DNA from: Siphonodentalium dalli | Lineage: Eukaryota; Mollusca; Scaphopoda; Gadilida; Siphonodentaliidae | DNA length: 64,000 bases | NCBI GenBank assembly: GCA_032622095.1 | Contig: CP136066.1 | Location: 92,029,319-92,093,318 of the forward strand | Direction: 5' to 3' | Part shown: one piece after another, positions 28,701 through 52,109 of the stretch | How the letters are laid out: each line of letters opens with the position of its first letter | How positions within the stretch are numbered: position 1 is the first letter of the stretch | Position numbers and translations under genes: made by a program | The notes under the pieces: model-generated | What the model was told of the DNA's origin: nothing | The model's database searches: none | What the model saw: the letters and a program-made list of their open reading frames with translations, nothing else

Positions 28701-31700
28701 TGAAATCTTTAATTTTCAACGGCGATATAAGTATACCCTAATGGTCGAGTAGTCTTGTTTTGGGTGAGGTTGTGGGTTGTGATGCACTTATTTATACAAT
28801 GCTATTCACACAGGGAGGACGGGACATTTAACAATTGCAAAAATTCAGTCGTCGTGCAAACGCCTAGTGGATGCGCGCCAGGTATGGTTTAATGTTTGAA
28901 TTGAATTCATTGTCTTATTTGTCCCAAGTAGAGTATGCGTGAGATGGCAAGTTTTTGGAGAAAGATACACTCTTAAAACAATAGGAACTCTGTAGTACCT
29001 ACGTAGGTACTGAGATTTGTCCCAGGGGAGTACCTAATTGTTGGTACTCTAGAGTATCTGCGTAGGTACTCTGGAGTACCTATATTTAGGTACACTGGAG
29101 TACCTATATTTAGGTTCTCTGGATTATCTATATTTAGGTTCTCTGGAGTACCTATATTTAGGTTCTGTGGAGTACCTATCCAGGCATTATGTGGAGTATA
29201 CAGTACCTAATATCAAGATATGTACTCTGGAATACATGATTGGGTACTCTGAATTACCAAACATTTAGGTACTATGCATAGTACCTATATATTTGGTACT
29301 CAACAGTACCAAATATATAGGTACTATACGGAGAACATGCCCATGTACCAAGCACTCGAAATTACGAATAATGTCCGACGGAAAATTTAATAATGTGGCA
29401 TGTTAGATTCCAAATGATGCCACGGCGTTTAGTCATCGAACTAAGTACAAAACCCCGGTCAATGCTCTCCCAGATCATGTCGCAAAATGAAATAATTCAA
29501 ATTATATTACTTTTATTAGTATAGAACCTTGATTTTGTTTTTGTACTTATTTCAAGGTTTAATACCTCGATTTCAGGATATCCCCGGCCTGTTCCCTGCA
29601 TGTGGAGCAAAATGTGTCTGAATGTCTAAAATAATGGGCCGTATTTCTTAATTTGTGTGTAATAACATTAAAAAACTACTTTGCGATGAATCGCAAACCT
29701 TTGCGAATCGCAAACTTCTATACAATAAATATAATTGGTATTTAGTGCAAAGGTTTTCGATTTATAACAAATGTTTGCAATTAATCAAATCAATTTGCAA
29801 TTAATACAGGGCTTTAACCATATGAACATAAATCAGATATCTTCAACAGGTCTGGGTGAACTCAAATCGCTCTATAATAGCACGGTCAGGCTAAAATAGA
29901 CCGATCGGTCATTCACAGCCAGAATGCATGTGTGATGAGGCGAGCAAATCTTTGCGATAAATCACAAAACGACTTTGTGAAAAATCATAAAAACCTTTTG
30001 CGATAACTCGCAGACCTTTGCGATAACTCGCAGACCTTTGCGATAACTCGCAAACCTTTGCGATAAATCTCAAGCATCTTTACGATAACTCTCAATTAAC
30101 TACTTGGTGATTATACTTTACGATTTATCGTAAACACGTTTGAGATTGATCACAAAGGTTTGTGATTTATTGCAGATATATTGTAACGTGTTGGCACTAA
30201 TGGGCTTGAACCATATACACATAATAAATCAGACATCTTAAGCAGGTCTGGATGAACCACAAATCGATCTATAATAGCACGGTCGGGCTAAAATAGACTG
30301 ATCGGTCTTTCACAGCCAACATGCAAGGGGATTATTTACTGAGAATATTCAAAATTAAAACAACTATACGATAAATCACAAACACCTTTACGATAACTCC
30401 CAAACCTTTGTGATAAATCTCAAACATCGTTACGATAACTCTCAATTAACTACTTGGTGATTATAACTTTGCTATTTATCGCAAAGATGTTTGAGATTTA
30501 TCACAATAGCCCGATCAGGTTAAAATAAACCAATCGTTCTTTCACGGCCAGCATGCATCTGGGATAAGTGGAGTCACTCTAAACGGTTCTATTATTATCG
30601 ATCAACCAATACTTCAAAAACAAAACAAAACTAATTCCGATTTCTTTATCAAGACACCATATAATTATTTACTGAGAACATTCACAGTTAAAACAACTTT
30701 GCGATAAATCGAAAAAATATTTATGATAAATCGTCAACTACCGTACTTGGCGATTTATCACAAAGGTTTGCGATTAATCGCAATGATTTGTGATTTATCG
30801 TAGATATATTGTAATATGTGGGCACTAATGTGATTGAATCGTATAGCCATTATCAATCAGATATCTTAAACAGGTCTGGGTGAACCACTTACCGATCTAT
30901 AATAGACTAAAAAAACCGATCGGTCTTTCACAGTCAGCATGCATCTGGGATAAGGGGAGTCACTCTAAACTGTTTTATTGTTATCTCTCAACCAATACGT
31001 AAACAAAATTAATTCTGATTTCTTTTGCATGACACCAAATAATTATTTACTGAGAATATTCAAAATAAACATACATGTATACAGATTTAGATAGTAATAA
31101 CAAACAAGAAAATAGAAGAGGAAAGAGTCCATCCATATCATCTACCACTGCTAATTATAAGACACAACTCAATTATTCCCTCATTATGTGGTCACAACGT
31201 GGGCGTAATTGTGGAGTTGTTTTGGTGAGTGATCACATGCACAGTAAGAACAATGTATAAAATTTATAACGAAATGGAAAGTCTAAGAAACAGCTATTTT
31301 CGATAAATAAGACTCAATCTATGATCCGAAAACTTTTGGCAACTTCTGAGATAATATTACAAAAATAAACTCCATTTGTCATGACATTTGGCAAAAGTGA
31401 ATTGCGGACCCTGCATCAAGAAAAGCTGCACTAGAACGGTTCATTCAGTCCGCATTCTTAGTTGCAGTGAGGATACCTAGAATATTGATTATTTTCTTGC
31501 TTAATTCCTCTATACTATATATATAAACCATCAAATTATTTACTTCCAGGTCAGTCCATACGTATTCATAAGCAATACCAGCAACGTCACGTCGTATTCA
31601 GGATTATATATGGACATGCTACGTCTAATGGCGGAGAGTCTCAAATTTCGGTAAGCAAGCATGCGTTGTACCAACACGGAGAATGATACGAACACACTAA

Positions 31701-34700
31701 AAATGGTTAGTTGTTTACTGAATTGGGGTTATTCTCACATTCAACAGCTATGTTGTCATATCGTAGCATAAGAGGATAACACAATTCAGTTGTTACTCCT
31801 CCAGCGTTTAGAAGACTACTACTTCAAACAATGCACAAAGCACAAAGATTATGGTGGTCGTTTCCGGTCGCATGTGAATAAGCCCACACGATGAGAATGC
31901 TTACCCATTATAGAGTTATGATGTTCGCGAGAATTTTGGACGATCGTTATTTGGTAATATTAGTGTCTGTATTTTGCTCAGCTACTCACAATATGGCTAG
32001 ATCGATAGATATATCGAAACCAGATTGTTTTCACATGGAGTAATAGAACGAAATGAATTGAAAGTAGATTTAGTATAGTGGTTGTGATGTTGTATATCTA
32101 GAGTGTTGATGATTCTCATATGCAGTATAGGAAGGAGATGTGGGAGTGTAAATGATAAGCTATTGCTTTGGATCATACACCGATTTTGTGTTCTGACCTA
32201 TAATTTTTGCATCCGATCCGACACAACCATCATTTGGATGTGTATGAATATTTATTTTCATATTAATATTAACATTAATATTAATATTTATATTACATTA
32301 ATATTTATATTTCTCAAGCGATCTTGGACGAATCGCGTTATGTAGATGCTAGCTGATATATATGTTTGTGGTTCCAGTAGGAGCCAAGACGTTCGTTTTA
32401 AATAAAGACTAAAACAAATATGTTAACCAATCGCCTGTACTAAATAGGAAAATGCATTTTTGTCTTTTCAATAACTGTTCAGATTATATTGACGTGAAGA
32501 CCATAATAGGTGAATAGATGCACAATAACTATATTATAGTAATCAGCATTTATGTAAAGCGTACGACACGTCGATAATATAAATTTATTATATAATGTAG
32601 TGTACAGTATGTGTACCTAGGCTTGTACAAGAAAACCACAAACTGTACACAACATTGTATACTGAGATGTTTATTATCTATGATTATAATTACTTCGTGA
32701 CGTTACCCGGACTCGAAAAGTCAATATGACTTTCGGACTCCTGTGATATCGGGTAGTTTATTCTTGCCTTGACACTTTCAGAGTCCAGTATGGCTTTTTC
32801 CCGGAGTATCATGTGACGGCTTTTGCCCAATATTATTAGTAAATGGGTGGATAATGCTAATTGTTATTGATTTATTAGGTCTAACATCCTTTCAGTAACC
32901 ATGCCATACCACGACTAATTACTATGGTACACTTTCAGATACGACATTATTGAATCAGTTGACGGACAAATTGGCGCAAAGAAACGGGATGGTACATGGA
33001 CAGGAATGATCGGTATGCTATTGAGAGGGGTAAGTCATAAGATTAGATAAGATAAGATTTAATGCAAAATACTCACAAATGGGCAGTTGCAAACATGAAT
33101 AAAATACAATTTGAAAACAGTTAACTATCTATATGAGATGAGTAACATATATATATGCATATGACACATGTACACTGTAGTTTATTAAGGGTATTATGTT
33201 TCAATTTGTTTACATTTACACACAGTACACAATCTTTCTTTAACGGGTAGTGGTGCCTGTTTGTGTCTCCCCTTTTCAATTTCCAATCTATAATTGCTGA
33301 TTCGCATTCCCGTAAATATAATTCTCGCTTTATTAGAACGCGTATCGCAAATGTATGGCTCCATTTCGTACCTTGTTTCAAACAACCTAAACCCTCTTGT
33401 CTTAATGCCAGCGGTCGGCTTCTTTTCGGAAGAGTTAATGTTGTAACTTTGTTTTAAATGTTCCGTTTTCAATTTTCTCACAAGCTCCTTTTCTTGAATA
33501 ACTTGAAGTTTCCTACGATTTGAAATATCAACACCATATTTTCCATATAAGTCATTTCATAATGATATCGACGCATTTTCAAGTGATTCGATGTATGCAT
33601 CATGTATCAAAGACCCAGCTGGAGAATTAGAAACCTTTTTCATATACTTGAATTGTTGTATAATCGCGTCATGTATTACCGAGATTCTGCCCAATTCTGC
33701 GCGTACGGCATGATTTGTTGCCTTTTGATTAACCCCTAATATCGTTTTGCAAAACCTAAGGTGAACTTGCTCGCATGGTATTGTGTCAGAATATGTGTCA
33801 TATTCTGGATACGGTTTATTATCGTGGGCACGACACCTCTGGAGGAAACGTTATTTACGAAGTCATGAGTTTTAGTATGCATGACAAACAATTGTTGAAA
33901 TCTCCTGTTTATATGATATTTGGCATTTTAATATTTCTTAGATGTCATCTAATTTTGTCATGAATTTGTTATTATCTGAATTTAGAACAGTATTAGACAT
34001 TTGAACGAAACGGCCCCGACGAAGGATTAATTACACAAAATATGGTTTGAATTACATATGGATCGAATTCGCTAAGCTCGGGTAGAATTTTTACTCTAGT
34101 GAATCTAAGTCATGGATATATAAGCATACGCATTCTCTGTCTTGTCATCTGGTAGATACTTAAATTTCCAACATATCCTCGCGCAAATACGCACATATTC
34201 GACCTATAATGTGCAAATAGGTTAATATTGGATTCTGAAAGAAGCAAATAATGGACTTATATCCATTACTCAATGTTATGGCGCGGGCCACAGTGAAACA
34301 CATTTTGAAGAGTGTGAGGTTTATTTGTGTCATTGTCCGCACATAATGAACCTATAATAAAGTCATTATAAGTCGATAATGTGACTAAAATGTTCTTAAT
34401 TTCAGTTCATTTTCGACTCAAAATGTAGCGATTCTAAGCAGATTATCGATCTAAATTAAATTATATTAGAAGCAGAAAAAATGTGCGGTTTTCGGGAAAA
34501 CACGCTGAAATTCCATGAGATGAAAGCCCGAATTTTTTTTAAGTTGATGTATATTTATTTGTAAGATATCCAGAGATATCCGTAAATATTGTTATGTCTA
34601 AAATGGTTATTAAGCTGAATATTGCGAATTTTGTTTTGTTTAGTTTGTTCTTTGGTCTGCATTAGCGAGAGATATTGGCAGCTATTAGTGTTGAATGGGG

Positions 34701-37700
34701 AACATGAAAAGTAATATAATTTTCTCCTCCGTGTCAGTTCTTTTTGGGGCCAAGCATACTCATCGGAATCTTGAACCTCACTTTGGTTTACACTATTTAT
34801 AGACATGATGGATAATTAGTTTGGGTTAAACTCAACTATGTGTCATTTAATACAGTGAAATATGAAATTCTAATGCGAGAAAAGGCGTTCCCGTAGACGT
34901 GAAGTGTATTTGCTATAAATGTGGGGTATATGTTTGAGGCTATGGTGCATACAGGGTAGATTCGAATGGGTAATCAAATTAAAGGATCAGCGGGGGGGGG
35001 GGGGGTTGGGCGTGATTAGCAATGGCCGTTGAACTGGTCGCATTATTGTATCAAATAACGTGTGTATTTTCAACTATGGTATATGCTTTACCAGGCAACC
35101 AGTTGTTTGTTTAAACATTCAAGCTGTTTCAACAAACCGTTGTTTGTATTACCATTACATACACAACATTAACAAACATTGGAGCCTATGTTCCAGCAAT
35201 TTTGAGATCGATTGGACTCCACTTTGCAGAGTTGTTTGCATTTTGGAATTATATATACGAAAGACAATAAAAATAACAAAATCCACCTAATTTATTGTCC
35301 CTGCATGTTTGGAATACGTTTTGTAGGATATAGTGTTGACTTAAATGAAGATACCAGACTTTAGTCTAGAAATAAGACTAAGATTCGTACTATCTTTATC
35401 CTTCTATTAATTGTATACATGTATTACTGTATGGTAATCGTTGCCTAACATCATTCGAAAGCAAAAGATATGCTATTAGCTTCCACATAACATTAATACT
35501 ACGGAATGTATAACTAATTTATTCACAAAACCCATCTCTGCATGAACCAACTATTAAAATGCACCATGTGCCAGGTATTGAAGCAATTGGCGACTTTTGA
35601 AGTAAAGAACTTTTTTTCTTCGAAGAAAGCTAGATTGACTAAATAACGGACATATACAGAAATGAAAACAAAAAAAATACACAAATTTAATAGCGTTATT
35701 TTAAAAAGCGTTTTTGTTCCCAGAAGAAGTGATTCTAAAGAGGTGCTACAGAGTATATCCCGTTTCACCACGGATTTACTAGTGTATAATCTGTTACACC
35801 ATGACTCCATCAATAATTTACTACTGTATAAATTATCACTCAGGCCCCATAATGTAGTATTGTTACACATGGCTTATGGCACTGTTAGAAACCAGTTTGT
35901 TGCTATAGTGGTCTCCTTGTGCATTAACAAAAATAATCTTTAAACAAAGGGCATATGTGTTTATGATCACTATATCTGACTCCATAATGCAGACTTGTAT
36001 CAACGGGATTGGTGGCTTCTTTTGAAACATATAGTTTGTATTTATAGACACTATCAGTCTATATTTGACACGTTATGTGTTTCATCTACTGTTCAATTAA
36101 TAAAACAAGAATTTTGCCGATCTAAATACTTATCCGATACTCAGTTACAAAGTGTTAATCGAATTTTGAAGTTTAGAACTCGAACCACAAGCTACCCGTG
36201 GCAAAAGGATCATGGACTAGCCAGGATATGAATGATCGGAAATGTCACCTTTGTGGAAAATCACATGGCGATGAATATCGCTATACCCTTAACTGTCAGG
36301 CTGTACATGGTAATAGACCGGAATTAATTGAAGAATATTATTATACAAATCCCTCTCATTATAAGTTATATGAGCTTTTTAATGCGGGAGAGGAATCAGT
36401 TTTGAGAAATCTATTTGAGATTTATTGGGAAAGTACTAGAACAATTGTGACCACCTTGGACTTTTAATCTGCTAGACTATCGGAAGTAATTAAGGTGTGA
36501 TGTTTATATGTATAAGGACTCGAAATCTGGGCGGAAGGGGGTAGTTGCCATGGTTGCTACTTGGTGCTCTTGGTGCGTACTTCCATGCGACGTGTTCACG
36601 ACCCACCGGTGCATCAACCACCGACCTGGCAATGCACAACCTTTTTGCCCCGTAAATTTATTTTATTTCATGTTTTTTGTTTTGTTCTCTTATGTCTTAT
36701 GATTAGGAGAGAACTTGAGGAATTAAAATCTAATCTAATCTAAAATCATATTTAAAGGAGGCAGATGTAGCCATCGCGCCACTCACTTTGACTCATCTCA
36801 GGGAGACTGCGATCGATTTCGTTCAGCCGATTTCCAGTGATGGCGTTGGGATAATGACAAGCGTTGATCAGGATGACTCAGCTACGATGTTCCGGCTCTT
36901 CCATCCCATCTCTTGGTCAGTGTGGTCCCTAATAGGGGTCGGCATTTTTGTGGTCGGCCTATCTCTGACTGCTGATTTGCATATCCGAAGGCGATCTATG
37001 AAAGACGAGTGTGCAGGTCATGACACGTTACGGAAGGAAAGCCGCTTTTCCGATAACTTGTGGCTGGCGTTGGCCTACTTTACAGAACAAGGTAGGTGTG
37101 TGTAACGCACACGTTCTGATACGGTTCAGTATTACAAACCAGAACATATACTGTCTTCTGTTACAATGAATACAACGAAACGCACACCATAATGGAACAT
37201 CCTGTGGCAAACAACATCGCCTGAATATAAATGGACAAATGATTGATCACAATAACGAAGTAACATGCCCCACCCTTCTCACCTGTTCAATAAGACAGTG
37301 ATATAACGCGCGCGAGTTAATGACACACACCCTACCGAAATATAATGAAAATTGACTCTCAGGTTGCATATGCACCACCCACATAGCACACCGATGTCGT
37401 TCTTGGTATTTACAGTAGCGGCGCAGGTCTTTGAACAGCATCGCCAATGTACACTGTCGTTTCTTCGAGACTTAACACAGAACTTATAGTGGTTAAAGAC
37501 GAGATATTTACCGCCGCGATAATTAGGAATGAGATACATATGTACTTGAGCGTTTGCCATTTTGATATGATCTGTCATTGGGAGCCTCTGCAATTTATAT
37601 GTTAGCGTGAGAATATGATGATCGCTGGTAATTAATAATCACTCAATTGAGTTGTTTTCAGTGACAAGAGTTAATATCGTGATATACAGTTATTGCCGGT

Positions 37701-37856
37701 AAGTTTGGACTACATTTTGCTTAAACAAACACTGCTTGTGATGGGATCACTAGTCACGCATTGTAAAAACAGATTATAACCTGCCCGCACTAATGCATTC
37801 ACACATCCCTGCAGGATAAGTGAGAATGAGCCATACAGATAGATAGACAGTTCCTA

Positions 37857-37905
<49 letters not shown>

Positions 37906-40900
37906 TACCACATCAAAACCTGCAGGTGATGAACAGCGACTTCTTTCTGTGTCAAGTAGACTGATCGTCGGGACATGGTGGTTGTTCACAATTCTGATTG
38001 TGTCAGCATATACAGCTAATCTCGCAGCCTTCCTAACAGTACCGGTTTCAAGCGATCACATTAACAGCCTCGAAGAATTGGCTAACCAGAACAAGATAAA
38101 GCCACTTATTCAGAAGGGAACCAACTTGCAAGACCTGTTCTCGGTGAGACATAGTTTTAGAATGCGTGCTATATAAAGACCTTCATTATCATGAATGCAA
38201 CGAACAATGTCACTCGATGTCATTCTAGATACTTCCTGTATAAATTATCACATACATGTATATACAGAATTAGATAAAGCCGTATAGAGGTGAAAAATAC
38301 CCGTCATTGTAATTACAATAGTAATTGAATAGTTGTCGCCAAACACGTTTCTGATTGGTCGAGATTTGCTAACTTCAGTTTTCGATTCACCAACATCATC
38401 ATCTGAAGCGTGCTCAAATTTTGAATCGAGCACGGTGTTATTGATAACGCGCATCAAATGCGTAACCGCGTAGCCAAGAGTTGCGTAATCGGGTTCAATC
38501 TGAAAGTTATTTACTATAGATACGATTTGCAGGAAGTTGTTCGGACGCTGCTCGAGTAACCCCGTGGAACGTACCCAGCTATTTGGTAACCGGAAAAAGG
38601 ATATTTCATATCATAGAATGTGATGTCGATAAACAAGTTCTTTCCTGCAGTTTCTTTTAAATTGTTTGTTGGATTGAATTTCAATTGCGATAAACTTTTC
38701 CTGTTGTGTTAGATATTTGAGGATTCGAGCATGAAAACAGTTTGTGGCCAAGCCGGCTTGTTCGCAACTGGTATTATGCTCGAACCCCAAATACCCAACT
38801 TGGCAGAGTATGTTTATATGATATATAACATTTAAAAAAAATACTAAATGATTTCTCCCAGTCAGTTAAAAAGTGTACATCGGACTGGTCTATTATTGAT
38901 TTAAATGGATGTTAAGGTGATAAAAGCAGAAGACAGATAAATAAAAGTGCAAAAGGAGCCCTAATTAGTGAGGCAAACGACATATGAACTATTATCTGAA
39001 TATTTAGTGTGGTATATCTGCTAATCAATGACGCTTTAATGTAGAAAAGGATAAGTAGACACAAATGGTCCAAGAAATTGTCGATTGGCCATTCACTGTT
39101 GTTTTTGGTACTCAATGTCTGATCAGTCTAAAAATAATATGTTTGTTCAAGCTCAAGATCAGCATAGTAATTTATCGCGTTTATGAAATTCAGACTATAG
39201 TTCAATGCGGAGTGAAATTTCTGAGTTTGAAAGGGAAATTATTTACAGTATATGTGGCAGTTGGCTTTCGTTGCACTATTGCGCAAGTGTCGCATTCAAT
39301 TATAGAAGTATAGATTGGAATTGTATTTTATTAATACATGTGTATTCATCTGGGTAGACGTTTATGAAATACAAACAGACGACCGACAGAGCGATGACCG
39401 ACGGGGCAAATAATTCAAGAGCAAAAGGATTCATAGTCATTGGTAAATGTTGAGATGGCTATTTATTGAACCTGTTATCAAGGACACTACTTCAATTCAT
39501 ATTTATCAAGGAAAATGATACAAGAAAATCACACAGTTAGCTAACTCAATACAACATCACATGTTGGCATGCAGACACAAGTATTTACTTTTCAAATCGC
39601 ATGATACATTTCCTACGTTGTACTTCAGAAGTCAAGCAGCGATCTCTACAGTAGGATTTGGGGAAAAATAAAGGAGAGTGGTGTGTTTGCCAAGGACATT
39701 CCTGATGGATTTCGCCTGGCTCGAACCGGGAAATATGCCTTGTTGGGTGACAAAACGTTCCTGGATTATGAAGCCGTAACCGATTGTGGTGGCCGCTTTG
39801 TCGTAGCTGACGAGACTTTCAACACTGCTCCACTTGCATTCGCTGTTCCACCGGGAGCTCCATACAAGCAAGCGTTTGATCGAAAGTATATATACCACGT
39901 ATTTTATGTATCAGAATTAGAGTAGCTGTTAAATGGGAAATAAAAACAAAATGTTAAAATGAATAATGGTAGTAATCACAAAACAATTGATTATTCTGTT
40001 TAGTACACTCTCCCCACGATTGAAGATGGTGTATCTCTTCTCTGAACGTTCTGTCTGTGTTGATCGGGGTGTAAATTATTTATTTTGAGTCAGAGAGAAC
40101 AGGCAACTGGAGCTTTCGTCATTATACCATAATTGTCTCCAATTTCGACTAGTTGACACAGGTTCCCTTCGGGATTCATTATTCAGCGTCGGGTGTGCCT
40201 GCGCTAAAGGCTTACGGCCCCTGCGTGCGTTTCGCGCATAATTTGATTTTTAGACAAAGCCATTATTCAGCCGCAGCCCCTTGCTTCTCGCAGATTTTGA
40301 TCGTTTAAACATTTAGACTAAACAAAAATAAAAATAATTTGATTGTGTTTAAATAAATTTGTTTTTATATTGAACTCCTTGCTCAATTTAACAGTTTTTA
40401 TTTTTATTTTTTTAGATAGTGTTTAGATATTTTTTTTTTAAACTGACGCCATGGGAAAATAAATTTCGAAGTGACGATATTTTAGTGGACAGGTGGACAT
40501 TCATTTCGAATGGGGAAAACGTAATGTACTGTACACATGGTTATGTGTCCAGCAAATAGCAGTGGCTTGAGGCGGTGCTATGAGTGGCCAAAAAATTCGC
40601 GTTCATGCACCCAGACGTAATTGTGACATTAGCACTTTTAATTTGCATCAAGAATCCTTATAAATGACTTATATATGTAATACAAGACAATATTTCATTC
40701 TAAAAAAACACTCAGTAATCTTTATGATAACGTCCCATTGTTTTCTTAGTTAATTATGGGGTCTTCCAGTTCTAAACTACTTGTATATCTCTCAACAAGA
40801 TCGGTTGTATCATCATTCGAGACCAGAAGTGCTAATGTGCGTACATGTATATATACATGTATGAATGTGACAAACCATAACTCCATGCAATGTGTAATGA

Positions 40901-42404
40901 ATATGCTGTGAAGTGGGCCATGAAATAGATTTGGCTCGGAAAGATAAGAAATAGCGTCATCCGAACAACCAGTTTGGATAAAATGTGGCATGAAACTTTC
41001 TTTACTTATACATGTATATAAGCTAATAACACATTTAAATCTTCCAAGTCAAAGGTATTCGTCTATTGATCAAATAATAAGTGTGAATCAAATAAATATG
41101 TCCAGAAATGATTCTGTCAATTAATATTGATTTTATTTCACCTTTTTCTGGTATAATACCACCTTTCGTAACAATTTTAGGGCTATTTTTTATATTAGAA
41201 CGTTCGGAACTACAAAGCGGGAGAACTCTATTGTGTTAGCAAATGTTATTTGATCTAACAGATTTCACCGCGAATTGCACACGGTTTATGGACAAATAGT
41301 ATACAAAATCTTCAGTTTGATCTGTATTGGTTCATTAAAAAGCTATTTATGGTTTGAAATCGGGGCTTATAACAAATAATTTGTTGCTGTAACTGTGAAG
41401 AGATACATTGTCTTTAAGTGGGCATTTAAGATATCAAGGATCTACAACGAGTCCCCAGTTTTTAGCGGAACTTACAAAATGAGTCCAGTAAATTAGGTAT
41501 GGACTGAGCCTTTGGCGATGTCCATACCTACTTTACTGGGCGAGTTTTGTAAATTCCGTTATAAACTGGGGACGAATTGTAGATTTAATTTATTACATTA
41601 ACCAAAACCTCGACAAAACATACTTAAATGAACAAATGGGACGTGATACTAACATCGACTTCTATAAGACATGCGGTGATGTTTCACATAACTATGCGTT
41701 GTTTGCCCGCATAAAGAAACAGCCTAGATAAATAAAGACTCTTTGACCGTATTCAATGGCGTAAATTTAATGAAATAACTTTTCAAACTCTTTATTCATT
41801 AGAGTTTGTTGTACACATATTGAAAGCCTCGGTATTTTGAGAAGTAGCTTACGGAATATAAACAGACGACAAACCGGAAGTCAAAGGTCACCTGACACAA
41901 TTTCCTGTTATGTAACGAACGTTTCATATAGATAAACACATTCTATCAATTGTGATCACAATTGATAGAATGTGCTTATTGAATGAAATAATGATAGGAT
42001 CGTGTAATAAATCATAATATCTGTCACTTAAATAATAACATATTATATTCCGTTTATGAGATCGCATATTGTTGTAATTTAGCTTTTTCCGAGAATGCCA
42101 TTTCCATTGCAGTGTACTCAAGATGCTGGAATCCGGACTGTTCGCCAAAATGATTCCGAAATGGTGGCCCATGTCAAAATGCGAAAAGCAGACATCATCA
42201 CCAGCTGGCCTGCGCATGGAATACATTGCCGGATTATTCATACTGTATGCTTCTGTGTCTATCGTTGCCGGCTTGATTCTTGTTATTGAAATACTCAAAG
42301 AACCCAGTTGTACACGGCCCTGCTCACAATTCAGAGACCTGCCCAGTGTTTCTGGCATTGCATCTGACGAACAACAGACACCATTTGAAGTGACACGGTT
42401 ATAG
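1576..42404 (+). CDS. Ionotropic glutamate receptor subunit (12 exons, 5' partial)
   Basis: Ligand-gated cation channel subunit of the plasma membrane, expected to open when an amino acid such as glutamate binds between S1 and S2. Exons 1576-1725, 9064-9321, 10592-10788, 16138-16326, 22425-22577, 28032-28253, 31550-31650, 32939-33029, 36758-37091, 37926-38143, 39629-39885 and 42113-42404 join with compatible phases into about 819 codons plus TAG. In order the product shows an amino-terminal domain, S1 with YSG and [10 protein letters not shown]1, a pore loop, the M3 gate [13 protein letters not shown]2 and M4, then a 37-residue tail ending VTRL. That is the full iGluR order; typical subunits are about 850-950 residues, so a signal-peptide exon of unknown position is missing at the 5' end (exon 1 begins with two bases of a split codon). 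Subclass (AMPA, kainate, delta or IR-like) cannot be decided by eye. The splice model is read from sequence only, not from RNA. Confidence 0.93.
1827..2047. mobile_element. Fold-back MITE in iGluR intron 1
   Basis: A nearly complete inverted repeat: arms of about 95 bases (left from GAGTAATCGACTTCTTAATC, right ending GGTTAAGAAGTCGATTACTT) around a short loop near 1938. TACCGTTATA occurs directly on both sides (1827-1836 and 2038-2047), a candidate 10-bp target duplication, although the right end carries a few extra bases. No coding capacity. It lies 100 bases after the exon 1 donor. Confidence 0.7.
2048..2754. other. Intron sequence without recognised features
   Basis: AT-rich intron 1 sequence. 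An 87-codon open frame on the minus strand (2402-2665) has no recognisable motif and is probably chance. The last four bases are CTAG, joined directly to the 5' end of the following Helitron. Confidence 0.5.
2755..3555 (+). mobile_element. Non-autonomous Helitron, copy 1
   Basis: Begins TCTACTATATAATGTGAG and ends with a CG-rich hairpin (CCGCC-A-GGCGG region), GCTAACCTG and CTAG. A 5' TC, a 3' hairpin about ten bases before CTRR and no terminal inverted repeats are the marks of a Helitron. There is no Rep/helicase coding. Inside lie a GT-rich run, a 46-base tandem duplication around 2995-3080 and three units of the repeat described at 3212. Its 3' CTAG is followed at once by the TC of copy 2. 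Confidence 0.75.
3212..3483 (+). repeat. Tandem repeat inside Helitron copy 1
   Basis: Three units of roughly 115 bases (last one partial). Each contains AAACGGGTGGAGCTATCGAC, then TTGAAATTTG and a block with TCGGGTCGCCGAGCCCGTGC. The overlapping open frames on both strands are products of this repeat, not genes. Confidence 0.8.
3556..4558 (+). mobile_element. Non-autonomous Helitron, copy 2, tandem to copy 1
   Basis: Begins TCTACTATATAATTTGAG directly after the CTAG of copy 1 and ends GCCGCCAGTGGCGGGC, TAACCTG, CTAG, followed by T as expected for Helitron insertion. The hairpin CCGCC-AGT-GGCGG is clean in this copy. The start is shared with copy 1 (GT run, then TACTTCATAGAATC), as is the block CTAACGCTCTTTATTG. 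The interior carries other short repeats (TGCGTGTTGTGTGATTCTTA units, about 3977-4215) and an AT-rich stretch. Confidence 0.75.
4559..5776. repeat. Degenerate CCATCT(A/T)G-type repeat array
   Basis: About 4860-5410 holds three to four diverged units near 165 bases. Each has ATGGCTGCTGGCGACCATGT-like and ATAGCTCCCATCTAGTGGTC-like parts. They are reverse-complement relatives of the arrays at 11260-12340 and 52110-52560. The open frame of 119 codons across them is explained by the repeat. The flanks (4559-4860 and 5410-5776) show nothing recognisable. Confidence 0.6.
5777..6474. mobile_element. hAT-type non-autonomous element with 8-bp target duplication
   Basis: Ends CGGGCTTCTCAA... and ...TTGAGAAGCCTG are inverted copies with one mismatch in twelve, the shape of hAT termini. 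The exact duplicate GGTGGAAT flanks it at 5769-5776 and 6475-6482, the 8-bp size typical of hAT. Just inside both ends lie GTACCGGTAC-rich subterminal repeats, the usual place for transposase binding sites. There is no transposase coding, so it is a MITE-like passenger in iGluR intron 1. Confidence 0.85.
6483..9063. other. Remainder of iGluR intron 1, little structure
   Basis: AT-rich sequence. A 14-base tandem duplication (GGAAATGTAGTTTG) lies near 7300, and repeated TTGGAAA(A/T)TTCC-like words lie around 7955-8095. No exon, RNA gene or complete mobile element was recognised. Confidence 0.5.
9064..9321 (+). CDS. iGluR exon 2: amino-terminal domain, lobe 1
   Basis: Reads [30 protein letters not shown] and then [13 protein letters not shown]. 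This matches the family pattern of VC..., a 'GV.AIIGP'-like strand, a 'P.I' strand and 'W..v.++Yd' before the lobe crossover. The acceptor GTATATAG at 9063 is preferred over a second AG at 9070 because only the first gives the right phase from exon 1 and keeps the conserved VC. Donor G|GTATGT, phase 1. Confidence 0.85.
9322..10591. repeat. Intron 2 with diverged copy of the 485-bp repeat
   Basis: About 9391-9490 reads AAAGTGATGTGAAACACTCC and continues in parallel with the duplicated unit at 19476-20446 (…GTGATCAAATAGAAAT…, ACGAATATTAATC.AAATGG). Only the first fifth or so of the unit is matched. The rest of the intron shows nothing recognisable. Confidence 0.6.
10592..10788 (+). CDS. iGluR exon 3: amino-terminal domain, lobe 2 start
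   Basis: Starts with the two bases that complete glycine (…LG-RSQIQDI) after TATTATTTTAG and ends in phase 0 at TCG|GTATGG. It encodes the helix-strand pair ending [19 protein letters not shown], the place where family members have 'ivl.c....a..iL..A'. It is joined most naturally to exon 4 ([13 protein letters not shown]), but see the optional exon at 10851. Confidence 0.87.
10851..10949 (+). CDS. Candidate in-frame alternative exon of the iGluR
   Basis: A 99-base segment, 33 codons with no stop in the phase left by exon 3, behind an excellent acceptor (TTTTTTGTTCCATTTTTTAG) and before a plausible donor (CAT|GTAGGC). It would add [20 protein letters not shown] and 13 more residues to lobe 2 of the amino-terminal domain. 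The intron separating it from exon 3 would be only 62 bases. Skipping it gives the usual family sequence 'FLKS-ASAGGML..YYW', so it is more likely a cassette exon than a constitutive one. A chance open segment is not excluded. Confidence 0.4.
11170..12340 (+). repeat. Degenerate GCCATCTTGGATTTTACTCT repeat array
   Basis: Five to six diverged units of about 150-190 bases. Each runs through TTCATATGGATCTTCGGGGT, GACCTCTAGATGGGAGC, a block with GAAATTCGTTGAAAAA and GCCATCTTGGATTTTACTCT. The array starts after a CGTCCGTCCATGTGTGCGTC head. Related arrays occur at 4860-5410 (reverse) and 52110-52560. No conserved frame is visible. Confidence 0.7.
12354..12955. mobile_element. MITE-like element with TATACCCCCAC ends
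   Basis: Starts TTATACCCCCACTTTTG and ends GTGGGGGTATAC, which are inverted copies of about 12 bases. The interior has a (CCGT)n stretch near 12440 and three parallel stretches (GACTTATAACTTTAA-like text before AATATGAACC.ATTT) spaced about 170 bases apart. No coding capacity. It follows directly on the previous array. The target duplication is not clear. Confidence 0.6.
12960..13855. other. Intron 3 stretch without recognised features
   Basis: Open frames on both strands at 13163-13490 overlap each other and carry no recognisable motif. Nothing else is seen. Confidence 0.4.
13856..14190 (+). repeat. Four-unit tandem repeat, period 82-84 bases
   Basis: Units begin near 13861, 13943, 14025 and 14109. 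Each contains ATGGGTTGATAAATCGTTGG, CAAGGCTACCTTCTACTACC and TCGCTGTGTACAT, then ATAGAATCACAA. The last unit is diverged at its end. Confidence 0.85.
14191..16137. other. Intron 3 end without recognised features
   Basis: Short unrelated open frames only. No exon-like segment with compatible splice sites and family similarity was found before exon 4. Confidence 0.4.
16138..16326 (+). CDS. iGluR exon 4: amino-terminal domain, lobe 2
   Basis: 63 codons, phase 0 at both ends, acceptor TTTCTGTTCCAG and donor TCC|GTGAGT. It encodes [20 protein letters not shown] followed by [14 protein letters not shown], matching 'A...GM....Y.w.l......dl......Ni..f' of iGluR amino-terminal domains. NKT is a possible N-glycosylation site. 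The open frame continues past the donor, but the family match stops there. Confidence 0.88.
16327..18520. other. Intron 4 start without recognised features
   Basis: AT-rich, with short chance open frames on both strands. No repeat structure stands out. Confidence 0.4.
18545..18846. mobile_element. MITE related to elements at 42726 and 53475
   Basis: Shares, in reverse orientation to the 42726 copy, AACGCTCTTTATTATT-, GTTTATGCTTTGTTTACAT- and GCGGTTTTTGACAGGTGGAA-like segments. It ends GGCCGTCCGTACCTTTAA, comparable with the end of the 53475-53834 copy. Non-coding. The left boundary is uncertain. Confidence 0.5.
19100..19410 (+). repeat. Minisatellite of TTTAACGACATTTTTCGGTC
   Basis: Seven or more copies of TAGTTTAACGACATTTTTCG plus GTCTTT, spaced about 29-65 bases. 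Some are joined by ATATAGGG...GTATTTGGATCTC linkers. Spacing is irregular, so it is not a CRISPR array. Confidence 0.8.
19476..20446 (+). repeat. Head-to-tail duplication of a 485-base unit
   Basis: 19476-19960 and 19961-20446 are nearly identical over their whole length, from CTTGAAAT(T/G)CAGTTTTTCT to GCATTAAACGATTT. A few substitutions separate them, so the duplication is fairly recent. A third diverged partial copy lies at 9391-9490. The minus-strand open frames here are not conserved between the copies. Confidence 0.88.
20447..22424. other. Intron 4 end, no further structure
   Basis: GCGAGAATC words repeat around 20480-20565 with partial reverse complements. Otherwise nothing is recognised before exon 5. 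Confidence 0.4.
22425..22577 (+). CDS. iGluR exon 5: amino-terminal domain (frame masked by other ORFs)
   Basis: 51 codons in phase 0 at both ends, between CATATTCCAAG and CTG|GTAAGA. The frame reads [20 protein letters not shown] then ...[15 protein letters not shown]. 'L.DAV.a.A.A' is the conserved helix of iGluR amino-terminal domains, expected exactly between exon 4 and the [11 protein letters not shown] block of exon 6. A longer open frame overlaps it in another register, so simple ORF finding hides it. The segment is clearly more GC-rich than its intron surroundings. Confidence 0.85.
22885..23420 (-). other. Unrecognised, possibly decayed coding segment
   Basis: Two overlapping minus-strand open frames (124 codons at 22885-23259 and 70 codons at 23147-23359) have protein-like composition, for example [20 protein letters not shown] and [20 protein letters not shown] do not recognise a family. 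They lie inside iGluR intron 5 in antisense orientation, so a decayed mobile element is more likely than a host gene. Confidence 0.25.
23421..24059. other. AT-rich intron stretch with TTCTTGG/AACAAAT words
   Basis: Around 23690-23960 words such as AAGAACAAATATTCTTGG and their complements recur irregularly. This is low-complexity sequence with no recognised function. Confidence 0.4.
24060..24490 (-). mobile_element. CR1-like LINE reverse transcriptase remnant
   Basis: The minus strand reads [40 protein letters not shown] and [15 protein letters not shown]. This is the C-terminal part of a LINE reverse transcriptase (family text 'l...LV.S+LDYcN.LlaG.....+.kLQ...N.AaRl...tp....itPvL..lHWLP'). 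Upstream on that strand KTEVLIF fits the preceding 'n..KTe.l.f' block. Only about 140 codons remain, with stops, so it is dead. The jockey/CR1/L2 group is clear; finer placement is not. Confidence 0.8.
24491..25702. other. Intron 5 stretch, small palindrome only
   Basis: At about 24709-24741 GTGGTACAATT and AATTGTACCAC form an 11-base stem. Otherwise nothing is recognised. Confidence 0.4.
25703..25847. repeat. Perfect inverted repeat, 71-base arms, 3-base loop
   Basis: Left arm 25703-25773 and right arm 25777-25847 are exact reverse complements (outer end AAGAAATAAATACACGGTGT, centre GGACGACG-CTA-CGTCGTCC). The symmetry breaks sharply just outside. It could be a very young fold-back insertion or cruciform, or an artefact of hairpin copying during library making or assembly. 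Confidence 0.95.
25848..28031. other. Intron 5 end; SINE-like 3' tail near 27390
   Basis: 27390-27440 reads GGCCCAGCTGCTAAACGACG, TTAAACTC and a run of TCAATCAATAAATCAATC. This resembles the 3' ends of SINEs common in molluscs. The body upstream is not recognisable. The rest of the stretch shows nothing. Confidence 0.4.
28032..28253 (+). CDS. iGluR exon 6: end of amino-terminal domain and linker to S1
   Basis: 74 codons, phase 0 at both ends, acceptor TTTATTGCAG, donor [29 protein letters not shown] matches the family block 'f.GltG.i.Fd..G.R.', [10 protein letters not shown] matches 'vG.W....gl', and [12 protein letters not shown] is the 'tLrvvTi' strand that opens S1. NWS is a possible N-glycosylation site. 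The open frame running on to 28436 is intron read-through. Confidence 0.92.
28254..28984. other. Start of intron 6, short direct repeat only
   Basis: Two parallel blocks near 28480-28600 (ATATGGTA.GATATTT.ATTTT.CCAATATA) sit about 60 bases apart. Nothing else is seen. Confidence 0.4.
28985..29330. repeat. GGTACTNNNGAGTACC minisatellite
   Basis: About fourteen irregular units with GGTACTCTGGAGTACCTATA and TTTAGGT, period near 26. Each unit is itself nearly palindromic (GGTACT...AGTACC), so long single-strand hairpins are possible. No coding or CRISPR character. Confidence 0.85.
29640..31000. repeat. Interleaved GCGATAA repeat and 100-base unit
   Basis: Two repeat types alternate. The short one is TTTGCGATAACTCGCAGACC and variants (exact 21-22-base tandem copies at 29997-30060, inverted forms elsewhere). 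The long one contains AATAGCACGGTCAGGCTAAA, ATAGACCGATCGGTC and TTTCACAGCCAGCATGCAT, and occurs near 29838, 30227, 30510 and 30860. The spacing of about 390, 280 and 350 bases suggests repeated duplication of a composite unit. Confidence 0.8.
31550..31650 (+). CDS. iGluR exon 7: S1 of ligand-binding domain
   Basis: Begins with VSPYVF (family 'e.PyVm') after TTACTTCCAG and ends inside an Arg codon at TTTCG|GTAAGC. It contains NTS and NVT glycosylation sequons and [20 protein letters not shown], which matches 'yeGyc.DLl..la..l.F'. The tyrosine before S-G is at the position of the ligand-stacking aromatic (Tyr450 of GluA2). Confidence 0.93.
31651..32938. other. Intron 7 with an ATATTAATATT run
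   Basis: 32245-32312 is an imperfect TATTAATATTAACATTAATA microsatellite-like run. The rest has no recognised feature. Confidence 0.5.
32939..33029 (+). CDS. iGluR exon 8: S1, DG..GA...DG.W.GM.G segment
   Basis: Completes the split Arg codon, then reads [20 protein letters not shown] and [10 protein letters not shown]. This is the family block 'y.i..v.DgkyGa....g.WnGmiGeLl.g'. Acceptor ACTTTCAG, donor GGG|GTAAGT, phase 0 at the end. The donor lies directly beside the 3' tail of a minus-strand LINE remnant that fills the start of the next intron. Confidence 0.93.
33034..33600 (-). mobile_element. LINE 3' end remnant (ORF2 C-terminus) at the exon 8 donor
   Basis: The minus strand reads [40 protein letters not shown]. 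This is the C-terminal end of LINE ORF2 proteins (family text '+fR.S.H.L.iE.GR....P...R.C..C'). It is followed by a 3' UTR and a tail of TCTTATCTTATCTAATCTTA ending at about 33035. The tail therefore touches the exon 8 donor (33030). Five-prime truncated and decayed. Confidence 0.75.
33601..35639. other. Middle of intron 8; G tract at 34992
   Basis: Possible further diverged LINE sequence on the minus strand up to about 33780. 34992-35005 is a run of 14 G. Nothing else is recognised. Confidence 0.4.
35640..36742 (+). mobile_element. LINE 3' end remnant (ORF2 C-terminus) at the exon 9 acceptor
   Basis: The plus strand reads [20 protein letters not shown], then [20 protein letters not shown] and [20 protein letters not shown] up to a stop at 36467. 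C..C....DEyhy...C is the usual C-terminal motif of CR1/L2-like LINEs. A 3' UTR follows and the element ends in AATCTAATCTAATCTAAAA near 36742, about 15 bases before exon 9. The 5' extent is uncertain; the reading is broken. Confidence 0.75.
36758..37091 (+). CDS. iGluR exon 9: end of S1, M1 and pore loop
   Basis: Phase 0 start at AAAG|GAG, with [20 protein letters not shown] as the end of S1. P-L-T and Arg (codon at 36800) are the residues that hold the ligand alpha-carboxyl in the family. M1 follows ([20 protein letters not shown]), then a basic loop, then the re-entrant pore loop [15 protein letters not shown]. Aligned to GluA2 'FMQQGCD', the first Gln (Q/R site) is Glu here (codon 37085-37087). 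Ends phase 1 at AAG|GTAGGT. Confidence 0.94.
37092..37858. other. Intron 9, nothing recognised
   Basis: Minus-strand open frames here (for example 37279-37593) lack any recognisable motif. Confidence 0.4.
37859..37908. repeat. (TA)n microsatellite before exon 10
   Basis: About twenty TA dinucleotides followed by AATATATATA, ending some 17 bases before the exon 10 acceptor. It replaces the usual pyrimidine tract, leaving only CCACATCAAAACCTGCAG. Confidence 0.95.
37926..38143 (+). CDS. iGluR exon 10: pore exit, M3 gate and start of S2
   Basis: Follows AAAACCTGCAG. Reads [19 protein letters not shown], then M3 with [12 protein letters not shown], the family's most conserved sequence (usual [12 protein letters not shown], first Ser changed to Ala here). 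Then [20 protein letters not shown] and TNLQDLFS of S2. Where GluA2 has Gly-Ser-Thr, this receptor has Gly-Thr-Asn. Donor TCG|GTGAGA, phase 0. The acceptor has almost no pyrimidine tract because a TA microsatellite sits just upstream. Confidence 0.96.
38144..38712. other. Start of intron 10, nothing recognised
   Basis: Sequence between exon 10 and the optional exon at 38713. A CATCATCATC run lies near 38393. No other structure. Confidence 0.4.
38713..38807 (+). CDS. Candidate poison or alternative exon in the iGluR
   Basis: 95 open bases between a good acceptor (CCTGTTGTGTTAG) and a good donor (GA|GTATGT), phase 0 in and phase 2 out. It reads [20 protein letters not shown] then [12 protein letters not shown]. 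Family members have nothing at this place in S2. Joined to the normal start of exon 11 it shifts the frame and meets TAA after 14 codons, which would cut off S2 and M4. A minor acceptor at 39636 would restore the frame ([12 protein letters not shown]). It is coding-like in composition, but RNA data are needed to say whether it is used. Confidence 0.3.
38808..39628. other. End of intron 10, nothing recognised
   Basis: Two short open frames on opposite strands, with no family resemblance. Confidence 0.4.
39629..39885 (+). CDS. iGluR exon 11: S2 of ligand-binding domain
   Basis: Acceptor TACTTCAG, phase 0. [14 protein letters not shown] continues exon 10 exactly as 'FF..S....y..mW..m' does in the family. 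[20 protein letters not shown] matches 'gkyAfl.Es...e......C': the acidic residue that binds the ligand amino group (Glu705 in GluA2) is Asp here (codon 39749-39751). [20 protein letters not shown] matches 'gyg.a.pkgSpl...'. Donor AAA|GTATAT, phase 2; the reading continues as intron to 39925. Confidence 0.94.
39886..41440. other. Intron 11, weak fold-back near 40300-40430
   Basis: CTAAACAAAAATAAAAATAA near 40320 and TTTTTATTTTTTTAGATAGT near 40400 are rough inverted copies, possibly a decayed fold-back element. Nothing else stands out. Confidence 0.4.
41443..41583. mobile_element. Fold-back element (about 60-base arms)
   Basis: CTACAACGAGTCCCCAGTTT at the left is inverted as AAACTGGGGACGAATTGTAG at the right. 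Within, GTCCAGTAAATTAGGTATGG pairs with CCATACCTACTTTACTGGGC around a loop near 41512. Several mismatches. A small MITE or decayed palindrome in intron 11. Confidence 0.7.
41932..41979. repeat. Perfect 38-base palindrome near exon 12
   Basis: 41937-41974 is a loop-free palindrome with centre ATCAATTGTGATCACAATTGAT, extended five more bases each side with one mismatch. It lies about 140 bases before the exon 12 acceptor. Confidence 0.95.
42113..42404 (+). CDS. iGluR exon 12: end of S2, M4, C-terminal tail and stop
   Basis: Acceptor TTCCATTGCAG. One base completes Asn, then [19 protein letters not shown] (family 'il.L.e.G.l..l..kWw'). After a loop with Cys, M4 reads [20 protein letters not shown]. 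The cytoplasmic tail of about 37 residues ends EVTRL and TAG at 42402-42404. The last four residues, VTRL, fit a class I PDZ-binding motif (Thr at -2, Leu at 0), as found on several iGluR tails. No AATAAA is seen before 42963, which lies in repeat DNA. Confidence 0.93.
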
Positions 42405-44039: not shown

Positions 44040-44825
44040 GAAAAATGCTACCTAGCTGTCGTCTGTCATTATTTTTTTGGCGGCTCTCATGTCTGTTTAT
44101 TTGCGCGCACTTAATATATCTTGGTGGATAGACTGGCACCTGGTCGAAAGCTGCACAAATCTGAAAAAAAACTGCAGCCCATTAACACACGCGTCGTTCT
44201 GTTTATTACTGGCCACCCGTCCTAGAATCCGTGAATTAAACCTTTACCCAACAAACCGGCCAAAACCGGCCAAATAAAGCTTCAACAGCCTAAAATATCT
44301 TCGGTCTGTCTCAATAGAACCATACAAATATGGATATCATTGGAACCGGCTCCTTGACCACATTGTGATAGTTACAGTTATGCCCTGTGCCAATGCATTC
44401 TCTTATATATGCGAGTCGACCATAGGTCGCCTCGCATATATAAGAGAATGCATTGGCCTAAAAAAAATCTTTTTTAAACACTTTTTACCATTTTTTCTTA
44501 CATTCTTTAACAATTTTATAATTTTTAATGTGTTAAGCCAATGCATTCTCTTATATATGCGAGGCGACCTATGGTCGACTCGCATATATAAGAGAATGCA
44601 TTGGCACAGGGCCGTTCTGTTGGGTAAAGGGTTAAAACAACAGTCTTACAACGTTTATTCAATCACATACAGGACTTTGTTTTGTCATGTGTGTTGCTGC
44701 TTTTATCTGATAATTTCGGTTCCATGGTTGAGGGTAAAGTCATTTACTTCGTGTGATGTCAACGGCTGTTCCATACGGATTTGTAAATATGGTACAGCAA
44801 GAACACTGTAATTCTTGGAACAAGC
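44040..44825 (+). repeat. Right part of repeat copy A, carrying a TTAA-site MITE
   Basis: Reverse complement of 60089-60480, from CTAGCTGTCGTCTGTCATTA to CTGTAATTCTTGGAACAAG, apart from the 392-base element at 44240-44631, which is absent from copy B. The 148-codon open frame here is made by the MITE palindromes. Confidence 0.8.
44240..44631. mobile_element. TTAA-site MITE, copy 1 (piggyBac-like)
   Basis: 392 bases flanked by TTAA (44236-44239 and 44632-44635), with ends ACCTTTACCCAACAAACCGG and GGCCGTTCTGTTGGGTAAAGGG that are inverted copies over about 21 bases. TTAA duplication with CCCTTT ends is typical of piggyBac-type elements; Kolobok also uses TTAA. It holds two 69-base hairpins, 44389-44457 and 44537-44605, that are exact reverse complements of each other. 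Non-coding. Copy B of the host repeat carries the empty site with a single TTAA at 60284. Confidence 0.88.
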
Positions 44826-46370: not shown

Positions 46371-46479
46371 TGATAAATAACACGTTTTGGGCAATTTTAT
46401 ACTATTGTTGGCAGTGGTTGGAATTATTTTTGGCAATTAATCGATTCTGATAACTGAAGCGGCTTTTCTAGAAATGTTC

Positions 46480-51779: not shown

Positions 51780-52030
51780 TTGCCCAAAACATGTTATTGT
51801 CAAATATCTGACACAAAAAAGTCACTTGATTTTAGAGTTATCCATCTTCATCCGCAATTTGTTCAGAGAAGTCTTCTCGTCGACTATTTACTGGGCCACA
51901 TAAAGTTACAATATTACAATTCAAACATCGAGATCTGATCACTCTGAGCTTTGATGGGTCGGTTCCTCGACTCGAATCAAATATCTTTTACCGCCGATGG
52001 CAAGGAAAGAGTAATTTGCGAGCGATATTT
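51780..52030 (+). pseudogene. Coding relic with LITLSFDGSVPRLESNIF
   Basis: In one plus-strand frame it reads RRLFTGPHKVTILQFKHRDL ITLSFDGSVPRLESNIFYRR W and continues to a stop. Over about 33 residues it is collinear with TVGLTKIVQAAKNRYLITLS FDGWVPGLESN of the zinc-finger pseudogene at 46240-46330, in the same register. It lies inside the 2.8-kb inverted-terminus element, so this coding unit may belong to that transposon family. Family unknown. Confidence 0.45.
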
Positions 52031-52109
52031 CGGATTGAGTACCTTTAACTCTTCAAATAAAAATAGACTATTAAAGCACTGTAATAAAATAAAACAAATG
52101 TGTTAAAAC

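What the first reader, a model, noticed from the sequence alone, without database searches (positions are those of the whole stretch)
37079..37937. Glutamate instead of glutamine at the iGluR Q/R pore site
The pore loop ends FTE-Q-G-D-E across the exon 9/10 junction. From the shared Gly to WW it aligns without gaps to GluA/GluK text (QQGCD.../GSELMPKALSTRIVGGIWW), so the Q/R residue is Glu (37085-37087). In known AMPA and kainate receptors Gln versus Arg here sets calcium permeability and polyamine block. An acidic residue in each subunit would put a ring of negative charge at the selectivity filter. A GAA codon cannot be converted to Arg by the A-to-I editing used in vertebrates.
Basis: partly seen in the sequence, partly recalled or inferred. 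Interest (0 to 1): 0.7.

Follow-up and report, generated by a model that had tools for sequence, protein, structure and literature searches.

The report
Glutamate-receptor family with acidic pore site
An invertebrate genome carries a large, clustered family of glutamate-receptor-like ion channels in which the pore position that controls calcium entry in AMPA and kainate receptors, there glutamine or arginine, is almost always the negatively charged glutamate.

Summary
The GAA codon at 37085-37087 lies two residues before the pore-loop Gly. An alignment to GluD1 without a gap across the pore, and an intron in the same Gly codon in two kainate-like genes and IR25a, put it in the Q/R column.

It is a family trait. 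Of 52 related pore exons in clusters of this genome, 50 read in frame: 49 Glu (37 GAA, 12 GAG), one Gly. The two disrupted copies still show EQG. The column changes once on the family tree; the mean is 8.3. None of 14 other iGluR pores read has Glu. Eighteen pore exons of another type have Ser, Ala, Thr or Met.

With the Q/R column removed, the Glu genes form a clade beside GluD1 (93.7/98), so delta-like fits better than AMPA/kainate, by a modest margin. Human GluA2 Q607E forms conducting, inwardly rectifying homomers (PMC6626132), so such a pore can work.

Selectivity, ligand, subunit mix and spread among phyla are untested.

The parts
22425..22577 (+). candidate exon of the amino-terminal domain ([14 protein letters not shown]...IVTSLKL)
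   Evidence: AG|..|GTAAGA boundaries and phase 0 read by eye; open and alike in the sister copy, but differences at codon positions 1/2/3 are 10/5/4, not a coding pattern; joined with the next exon it gives ANF_receptor E 0.011 at profile 281-351 of 353, below the cut-off; no significant PDB match for the two exons alone
28032..28253 (+). candidate last exon of the amino-terminal domain and first strand of S1 ([12 protein letters not shown]...STLRVVTIV)
   Evidence: splice sites GCAG| and |GTAAGT read by eye; in the joined protein HMMER aligns it to GluD1 from residue 376
31550..31650 (+). S1 exon (VSPYVF...AESLKF)
   Evidence: splice sites and frame; Lig_chan-Glu_bd match of the joined protein, 5.1e-25
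32939..33029 (+). S1 exon (YDIIES...MLLRG)
   Evidence: splice sites and frame
36758..37091 (+). exon with end of S1, M1 and pore loop, ending T-E-Q-G
   Evidence: its acceptor ATTTAAAG| is a weak one
37085..37087 (+). GAA codon: Glu at the Q/R (Q/R/N) site
   Evidence: Glu in 49 of 50 readable paralogues
37092..37925 (+). phase-1 intron in the pore-loop Gly codon
   Evidence: GGT at the Gly codon in 50 of 50 readable family pore exons; Gly at the start of 50 of 50 family M3 exons held (49 fetched and the window); same place in two kainate-like genes and IR25a
37926..38143 (+). exon with M3 ([13 protein letters not shown]) and start of S2; acidic residue at +4 (Glu)
   Evidence: Lig_chan 1.8e-17
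39629..39885 (+). S2 exon with Asp at the position of GluA2 E705 (LLGDKTF)
   Evidence: splice sites and frame; aligned to GluD1, position read by eye
42113..42404 (+). last exon: end of S2, M4, C-terminus, stop

Best explanation
The window holds one member of a large, lineage-specific, clustered family of ionotropic glutamate-receptor subunits, nearest to the delta class, in which Glu has replaced Gln at the Q/R site and has been held there by selection. Shown by sequence: position, near-fixation, clade, conserved splice site, conserved ligand Arg, acidic residue at +4 in most members. Inferred: the subunits form tetrameric cation channels opened by an amino acid or related small molecule that is probably not glutamate (Thr653, Leu655, Asp705 in GluA2 numbering in the window copy). 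Carboxylates at the filter, with the acidic ring four residues on, would draw in cations (probably raising conductance and divalent entry) and bind intracellular polyamines, giving inward rectification. The many copies suggest a diversified sensing role, perhaps chemosensory; that is inference only.
For: Q/R column: alignment without a gap across the pore to GluD1 and an intron in the same Gly codon in two kainate-like genes and IR25a. Near-fixation: 49 Glu and 1 Gly of 50 readable pore exons; 37 GAA, 12 GAG, 1 GGA; 1 Fitch change against a mean of 8.3, one of the 12 least-changing of 107 columns; invariant in 20 chosen representatives of 52, with 26-88% identity to the window copy. Clade: Glu genes against the rest 99.8/100 (42 of the 52 included); with the Q/R column dropped, monophyly 97.9/100 and GluD1 beside it 93.7/98 (32 of the 52 included). 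Purifying selection on the pore exon: median dN/dS 0.38 over 256 non-independent pairs. Function of such a pore: GluA2 Q607E expressed without GluA1 gave larger kainate currents than the wild type and rectified strongly (PMC6626132, passages); simulations gave higher conductance for Q586E (PMC12637533, passages). Delta receptors of starfish and acoel are ligand-gated (PMC10861852, section 5 read), the starfish one a mixed cation channel (passage).
Against: No transcript, protein or current is available. Vertebrate delta receptors conduct no ligand-gated current, and oyster GluD gave none, probably through low surface expression. GluA2 Q607E reached the surface less well with GluA1. Between the window copy and its sister the M3 exon has dN/dS 0.93 (2 synonymous, 6 non-synonymous differences), and upstream exons show no excess of third-position changes, so recent constraint on this pair is weak. 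The delta placement rests on about 160 columns, one delta reference and long branches; bit-score margins are small (joined protein 210.8 for GluD1, 203.2 for GluK3; 118.7 for GluD1, 115.2 for GluA2), and the pore exon alone scored best against GluA2, no delta entry being among the 60 shown.
Confidence: 0.6

Rival explanations
1. The family members are tuning subunits that join Gln-bearing or Pro-bearing partners (AMPA/kainate-like or IR25a), so only part of the filter ring is acidic and the effect is graded.
For: The same genome has IR25a with Pro at this column and seven or eight other iGluRs with Gln. Insect IRs are thought to form heteromers (PMC6472016, start of abstract in the listing).
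Against: No assembly data; delta receptors of starfish and acoel gave currents when expressed on their own.
Confidence: 0.3
2. The pore is no longer used for conduction (as in vertebrate delta receptors), and Glu is kept for folding, assembly or trafficking.
For: Vertebrate GluD1/2 conduct no ligand-gated current and oyster GluD gave none. The residue at this site affects surface expression of GluA2.
Against: The gating motif (YTANLAA or HTANLAA), the ligand Arg (no change in 50) and the +4 acidic residue (45 of 50 family M3 exons) are also kept, as expected of working channels.
Confidence: 0.2
3. Glu is neutralised locally (protonated, or paired with a basic residue), so the pore behaves much like a Gln pore.
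For: The authors of PMC12637533 find that partly protonated Q586E fits the modest measured increase better than the fully charged state (passages).
Against: GluA2 Q607E homomers rectify strongly; in the window copy no basic residue lies within five positions on either side.
Confidence: 0.15
4. Artefact: wrong junction, misalignment, pseudogene or sequencing error.
For: Two of 52 pore exons are disrupted.
Against: Same residue, phase and splice site in 49 of 50 readable copies on four contigs with two codons; an open frame from S1 to stop with AG/GT splice sites in the window copy.
Confidence: 0.02

Closest known systems
Delta receptors (GluD1/GluD2 and invertebrate GluD)
   Same: Best PDB match for the joined protein (3.1e-61) and for a composite of two C3-cluster exons; beside the family in the tree; Gly at +3 in 21 of 43 M3 exons counted, most with Glu at +4 as in GluD1; [quoted passage not shown]
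   Different: GluD1 has Gln at the Q/R site; this family has Glu; 52 pore exons here; amino-terminal domain very divergent
AMPA and kainate receptors
   Same: Same column sets Ca2+ entry and polyamine block; +4 acidic residue
   Different: Gln or edited Arg at the site; separate groups (the GluK2 group with weak support); glutamate-type residues at 653/655 not kept in the window copy (by eye)
Human GluA2 p.Q607E
   Same: Same residue at the same site; functional homomers with inward rectification (PMC6626132)
   Different: A rare de-novo disease variant in one gene, not an evolved family trait
Epsilon receptors with unusual Q/R/N residues (placozoan Ser/Ala/Leu, ctenophore Gly, amphioxus Phe)
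   Same: Natural departure from Gln at the site (PMC12226733, passages)
   Different: Neutral residues, another subfamily; the passages read mention no Glu at this site in a natural receptor
Gastropod ionotropic receptors that cluster with GluD (PMC12837371)
   Same: Delta-near, partly tandem, lineage-specific expansions (abstract and passages)
   Different: Pore residue not given in the passages read; up to 19-22 IRs per species there; [quoted passage not shown]

Membership tests
[quoted passage not shown]
   Lig_chan 4.2e-29 and Lig_chan-Glu_bd 5.1e-25, both above the curated cut-off; open frame to stop
Ionotropic glutamate receptor superfamily | [13 protein letters not shown] gating motif and ligand Arg485 | tested here: met
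   [10 protein letters not shown] in the window; Arg invariant in 20 of 20 representatives and unchanged in 50
Delta (GluD) class | Groups with GluD1 apart from AMPA, kainate, NMDA and IR25a | tested here: met
   SH-aLRT 93.7, UFBoot 98 with the Q/R column removed; one delta reference only; small score margins and GluA2 first for the pore exon alone
Delta (GluD) class | Gln at the Q/R site as in GluD1 | tested here: not met
   Glu in the window copy
Delta (GluD) class | Amino-terminal domain | tested here: inconclusive
   Sub-threshold ANF_receptor match in the right part of the profile (E 0.011); no PDB match on its own; the PF01094 search of the genome listed nothing near the family clusters
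Delta (GluD) class | GABA, glycine or D-serine as ligand | not testable with these tools
   needs expression
AMPA/kainate class | Groups with GluA2 or GluK2 | tested here: not met
AMPA/kainate class | Q/R site Gln, or codon editable to Arg | tested here: not met
   GAA, GAG or GGA in the 50 readable copies
Insect-type ionotropic receptors (IR) | Lack of amino-terminal domain and loss of glutamate-contact residues | tested here: inconclusive
   Arg kept; end of the domain probably present

The most novel reading that the evidence does not exclude
A ligand-gated glutamate-receptor-type channel whose filter carries a four-Glu ring, like the acidic filter ring of voltage-gated calcium channels, making it markedly calcium-preferring; an animal lineage multiplied it into about 50 genes as a calcium-signalling system that senses chemicals or transmitters such as GABA.
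Probability: 0.15. Interest if true: 0.85.

Novelty: new variant of a known kind. Interest (0 to 1): 0.6.

Why it matters
The Q/R site is among the best-studied positions of any ion channel. In what my searches and readings showed, Glu there appears only as a human disease variant and in simulations. A natural family of about 50 genes with Glu nearly fixed would be an evolved test of what an acidic filter ring does, and would show that delta-like receptors can keep an altered, conserved pore. One genome also supplies natural controls: Gln, Leu, Pro, Trp, Ser, Ala, Thr, Met, possibly Arg, and Glu pores side by side.

Tried and rejected
I first took the family for IRs without an amino-terminal domain, because PF01094 matches lie beside AMPA, kainate and NMDA loci and none is listed near the family clusters. 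Two upstream exons that continue in frame into S1, the second aligning to the end of the GluD1 domain, made me drop that; the domain may be too divergent for that search.

A candidate exon at about 38713-38812 was dropped: it has no counterpart in the GluD1 alignment, and 39629 continues the frame.

Phylum: no match to mollusc haemocyanin (PF14830) or annelid haemoglobin linker (PF16915). No control genome rang in either, so this decides nothing and the phylum stays open.

A DNA pattern for the pore end gave 300 hits against 250 for its reversed control and was not used.

Paper searches: nine ran; two searches returned no paper. In the listings and passages that I saw, no natural receptor with Glu at this site was named. 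'/' cannot be searched, so 'Q/R site' itself was not a usable term.

Mended on checking: my pattern for M3 had missed seven family exons with HTAN or YTSN; one search read them, so the +4 count is now 45 of 50. Two 'Leu' pores among the 14 others read Gln and Arg by spacing from M3.
Full report
What is there. On the + strand it holds a gene whose exons at 31550-31650, 32939-33029, 36758-37091, 37926-38143, 39629-39885 and 42113-42404 join into one open frame from S1 to a stop codon with AG/GT boundaries. Two more exons, 22425-22577 and 28032-28253, continue it upstream and look like the end of an amino-terminal domain. The joined protein matches solved iGluRs, best GluD1 at 3.1e-61, and Pfam Lig_chan 4.2e-29 and Lig_chan-Glu_bd 5.1e-25. 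The amino-terminal part alone finds nothing significant in the PDB and reaches ANF_receptor only at E 0.011, but in the C-terminal part of the profile, as it should.

The residue. The pore exon ends T-E-Q-G with GAA at 37085-37087. GluA2 reads MQQGCD; that its Q/R site is the first Gln is established knowledge, and PMC6307864 gives the site as Q586 (section 7 read). GluD1 reads VQQGGE, and the alignment runs without a gap through the pore loop into M3. Two kainate-like genes (C1:156508423, C1:156706295) and IR25a of this genome have an intron in that same Gly codon in the same phase, which fixes the register independently of the alignment. So Glu is at the Q/R site.

The family. A search with the pore exon gave 67 matches. 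The best 52, all in clusters on C3, C5, C6 and C7, I call the Glu family; all 52 were fetched. Fifty can be read in frame through the pore end: 49 Glu, one Gly (C3:72970078, GGA); codons 37 GAA, 12 GAG, 1 GGA. The other two are disrupted: C5:189325582 loses its frame inside the exon but shows AYVVEQG in another frame, and C6:138952034 is interrupted, with AYYMEQG in a stretch about 1.4 kb on. Fourteen further iGluR pores read have, counted from their pore Gly, 7 Gln, 6 Leu and 1 Trp; counted by spacing from M3, two of the six Leu cases read Gln (C5:84478094) and Arg (C5:84148864). None has Glu either way. IR25a has Pro. GluN1 (LNSGIG) and the other NMDA-type genes are not in these counts. A second search (90 matches) showed further pore exons; I fetched 18 of another type, and all 18 read: 10 Ser, 6 Ala, 1 Thr, 1 Met. 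They resemble one another; no tree was made of them. All counts are lower bounds, as the tool states.

Is Glu held by selection? In 20 representatives that I chose of the 52, it is one of eight invariant columns of 112. Over 50 sequences and a tree length of 11.8 it changes once; the mean is 8.3, and 12 of 107 columns, this one included, change no more than that. The residue before it varies (Met, Thr, Leu, Val, Asn) while Gln after it never does. Median dN/dS of the pore exon is 0.38 over 256 pairs with dS between 0.05 and 1; the pairs are not independent. Against this, the window copy and its sister have 0.39 in the pore exon and 0.93 in the M3 exon, the latter from 2 synonymous and 6 non-synonymous differences, and their upstream exons show no third-position excess. 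Gene conversion within clusters could homogenise copies, but the family lies on four contigs, and dS exceeds 1 for three of the eight members compared with the window copy.

Which class? A tree of 57 sequences, 42 of them from the family, separates the Glu genes from the rest with 99.8/100. Ten family copies were not in it: eight for which no M3 exon had been paired, among them the Gly copy, and the two disrupted ones. A second tree of 49 sequences (32 of the family; eleven near-duplicate or long-branched sequences left out, three references added), without the Q/R column, keeps the family together (97.9/100) and puts GluD1 next to it (93.7/98). There one AMPA-like gene pairs with GluA2 (95.9/100), while GluK2 joins the kainate-like genes with weaker support (88.8/86). 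Results against a delta label: bit scores differ little (GluD1 210.8, GluK3 203.2; GluD1 118.7, GluA2 115.2), and the pore exon alone was best against GluA2, with no delta entry among the 60 shown of 335. So 'delta-like' is likely, not proven.

Ligand. By the alignment, read by eye, the window copy has Thr, Asn, Leu at positions 653-655 and Asp at 705; Arg485 is kept. By the rules in PMC6307864, glutamate receptors have Gly/Thr at 653/655 and glycine receptors Ser/non-polar. Leu655 argues against glutamate; the ligand is open. Several invertebrate delta receptors are gated by GABA (PMC10861852, section 5 read).

What Glu would do. In PMC6626132 (passages on Q607E), GluA2 p.Q607E without GluA1 gave larger kainate currents than the wild type and strong inward rectification; its surface protein was reduced when co-expressed with GluA1. 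In PMC12637533, a preprint (passages), simulated conductance was about 10 pS for the wild type, 92 pS for fully charged Q586E and 20 pS when partly protonated. In PMC12226733 (passages), residues at this site change Ca2+ entry and polyamine block, and the +4 acidic residue is needed for the block. Of 50 family M3 exons held, 45 have Asp or Glu at +4; the others have Gly (2), Gln (2) and Asn (1) (43, seven). I infer a cation pore with strong attraction for divalents and polyamines. No Ca2+ permeability of a Glu pore was seen in what I read.

Editing. [quoted passage not shown] One paralogue encodes Gly in the genome.

Known or new? The passages and sections that I read name Gln, Arg, Asn, Ser, Ala, Leu, Gly, Phe and, in plants, Phe/Tyr at this site in natural receptors, not Glu. 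PMC6307864 says that only a third of the proteins with an acidic 590 in its newly defined groups have Gln586, without naming the rest in the section read, so Glu may sit in its figure supplement. Gastropod IRs that cluster with GluD (PMC12837371) may share the trait; their pores were not in the passages read. Three mollusc papers (PMC10642201, PMC5225553, PMC4890853; passages) held no match for the term 'R site'. My searches cover only openly licensed PMC papers.

Noticed in passing
G000 C6:72-76, 116, 158, 169 and 8.5 Mb; C8; C9:33 Mb; C5:258 Mb (L140-L155, L157, L158): Eighteen pore exons of another expanded iGluR type with Ser (10), Ala (6), Thr (1) or Met (1) at the Q/R site and GGT at the same pore Gly codon.
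   Followed up: partly
G000 C5:84148864 (L072): By spacing from M3 this single-exon iGluR has an encoded Arg at the Q/R column (LLRGSLISAP).
   Followed up: partly
G000 C5:54375761 and C5:232089924 (L064, L066): Two AMPA-like genes with Leu at the Q/R site (MLQG), grouped together in the trees.
   Followed up: partly
G000 C3:72970078 (L051): The only readable family member with another residue: Gly (GGA), the residue that editing of a GAA codon would give.
   Followed up: partly
G000 C6:90361911, C6:90476156, C5:188793159, C5:32631228 (L094, L095, L128, L100) and L093: Five family M3 exons lack the acidic residue at +4 (Gly, Gly, Asn, Gln, Gln).
   Followed up: no
L093, L119, L120, L122, L125, L132: Six family M3 exons have His for the Tyr of the gating motif (HTANLAA).
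   Followed up: no
window 44236-44535 and 45696-45995: 300-base direct repeat, 98% identical, each copy holding an 80-base inverted-repeat arm; similar text is seen after the pore exons of C6:90360810 and C6:90476939.
   Followed up: partly
window 50537-53358: Inverted repeat pairs (233 bases at 95%, 183 bases at 88%) about 2 kb apart, like a fold-back element.
   Followed up: partly
window 36177-36467: Open frame with a CxxC..H..C look just before the pore exon, perhaps a piece of a retroelement; no Pfam match, the likeness is recalled only.
   Followed up: partly
window 29007-29268 and 46437-47549: Repetitive, minisatellite-like stretches open in several frames.
   Followed up: no
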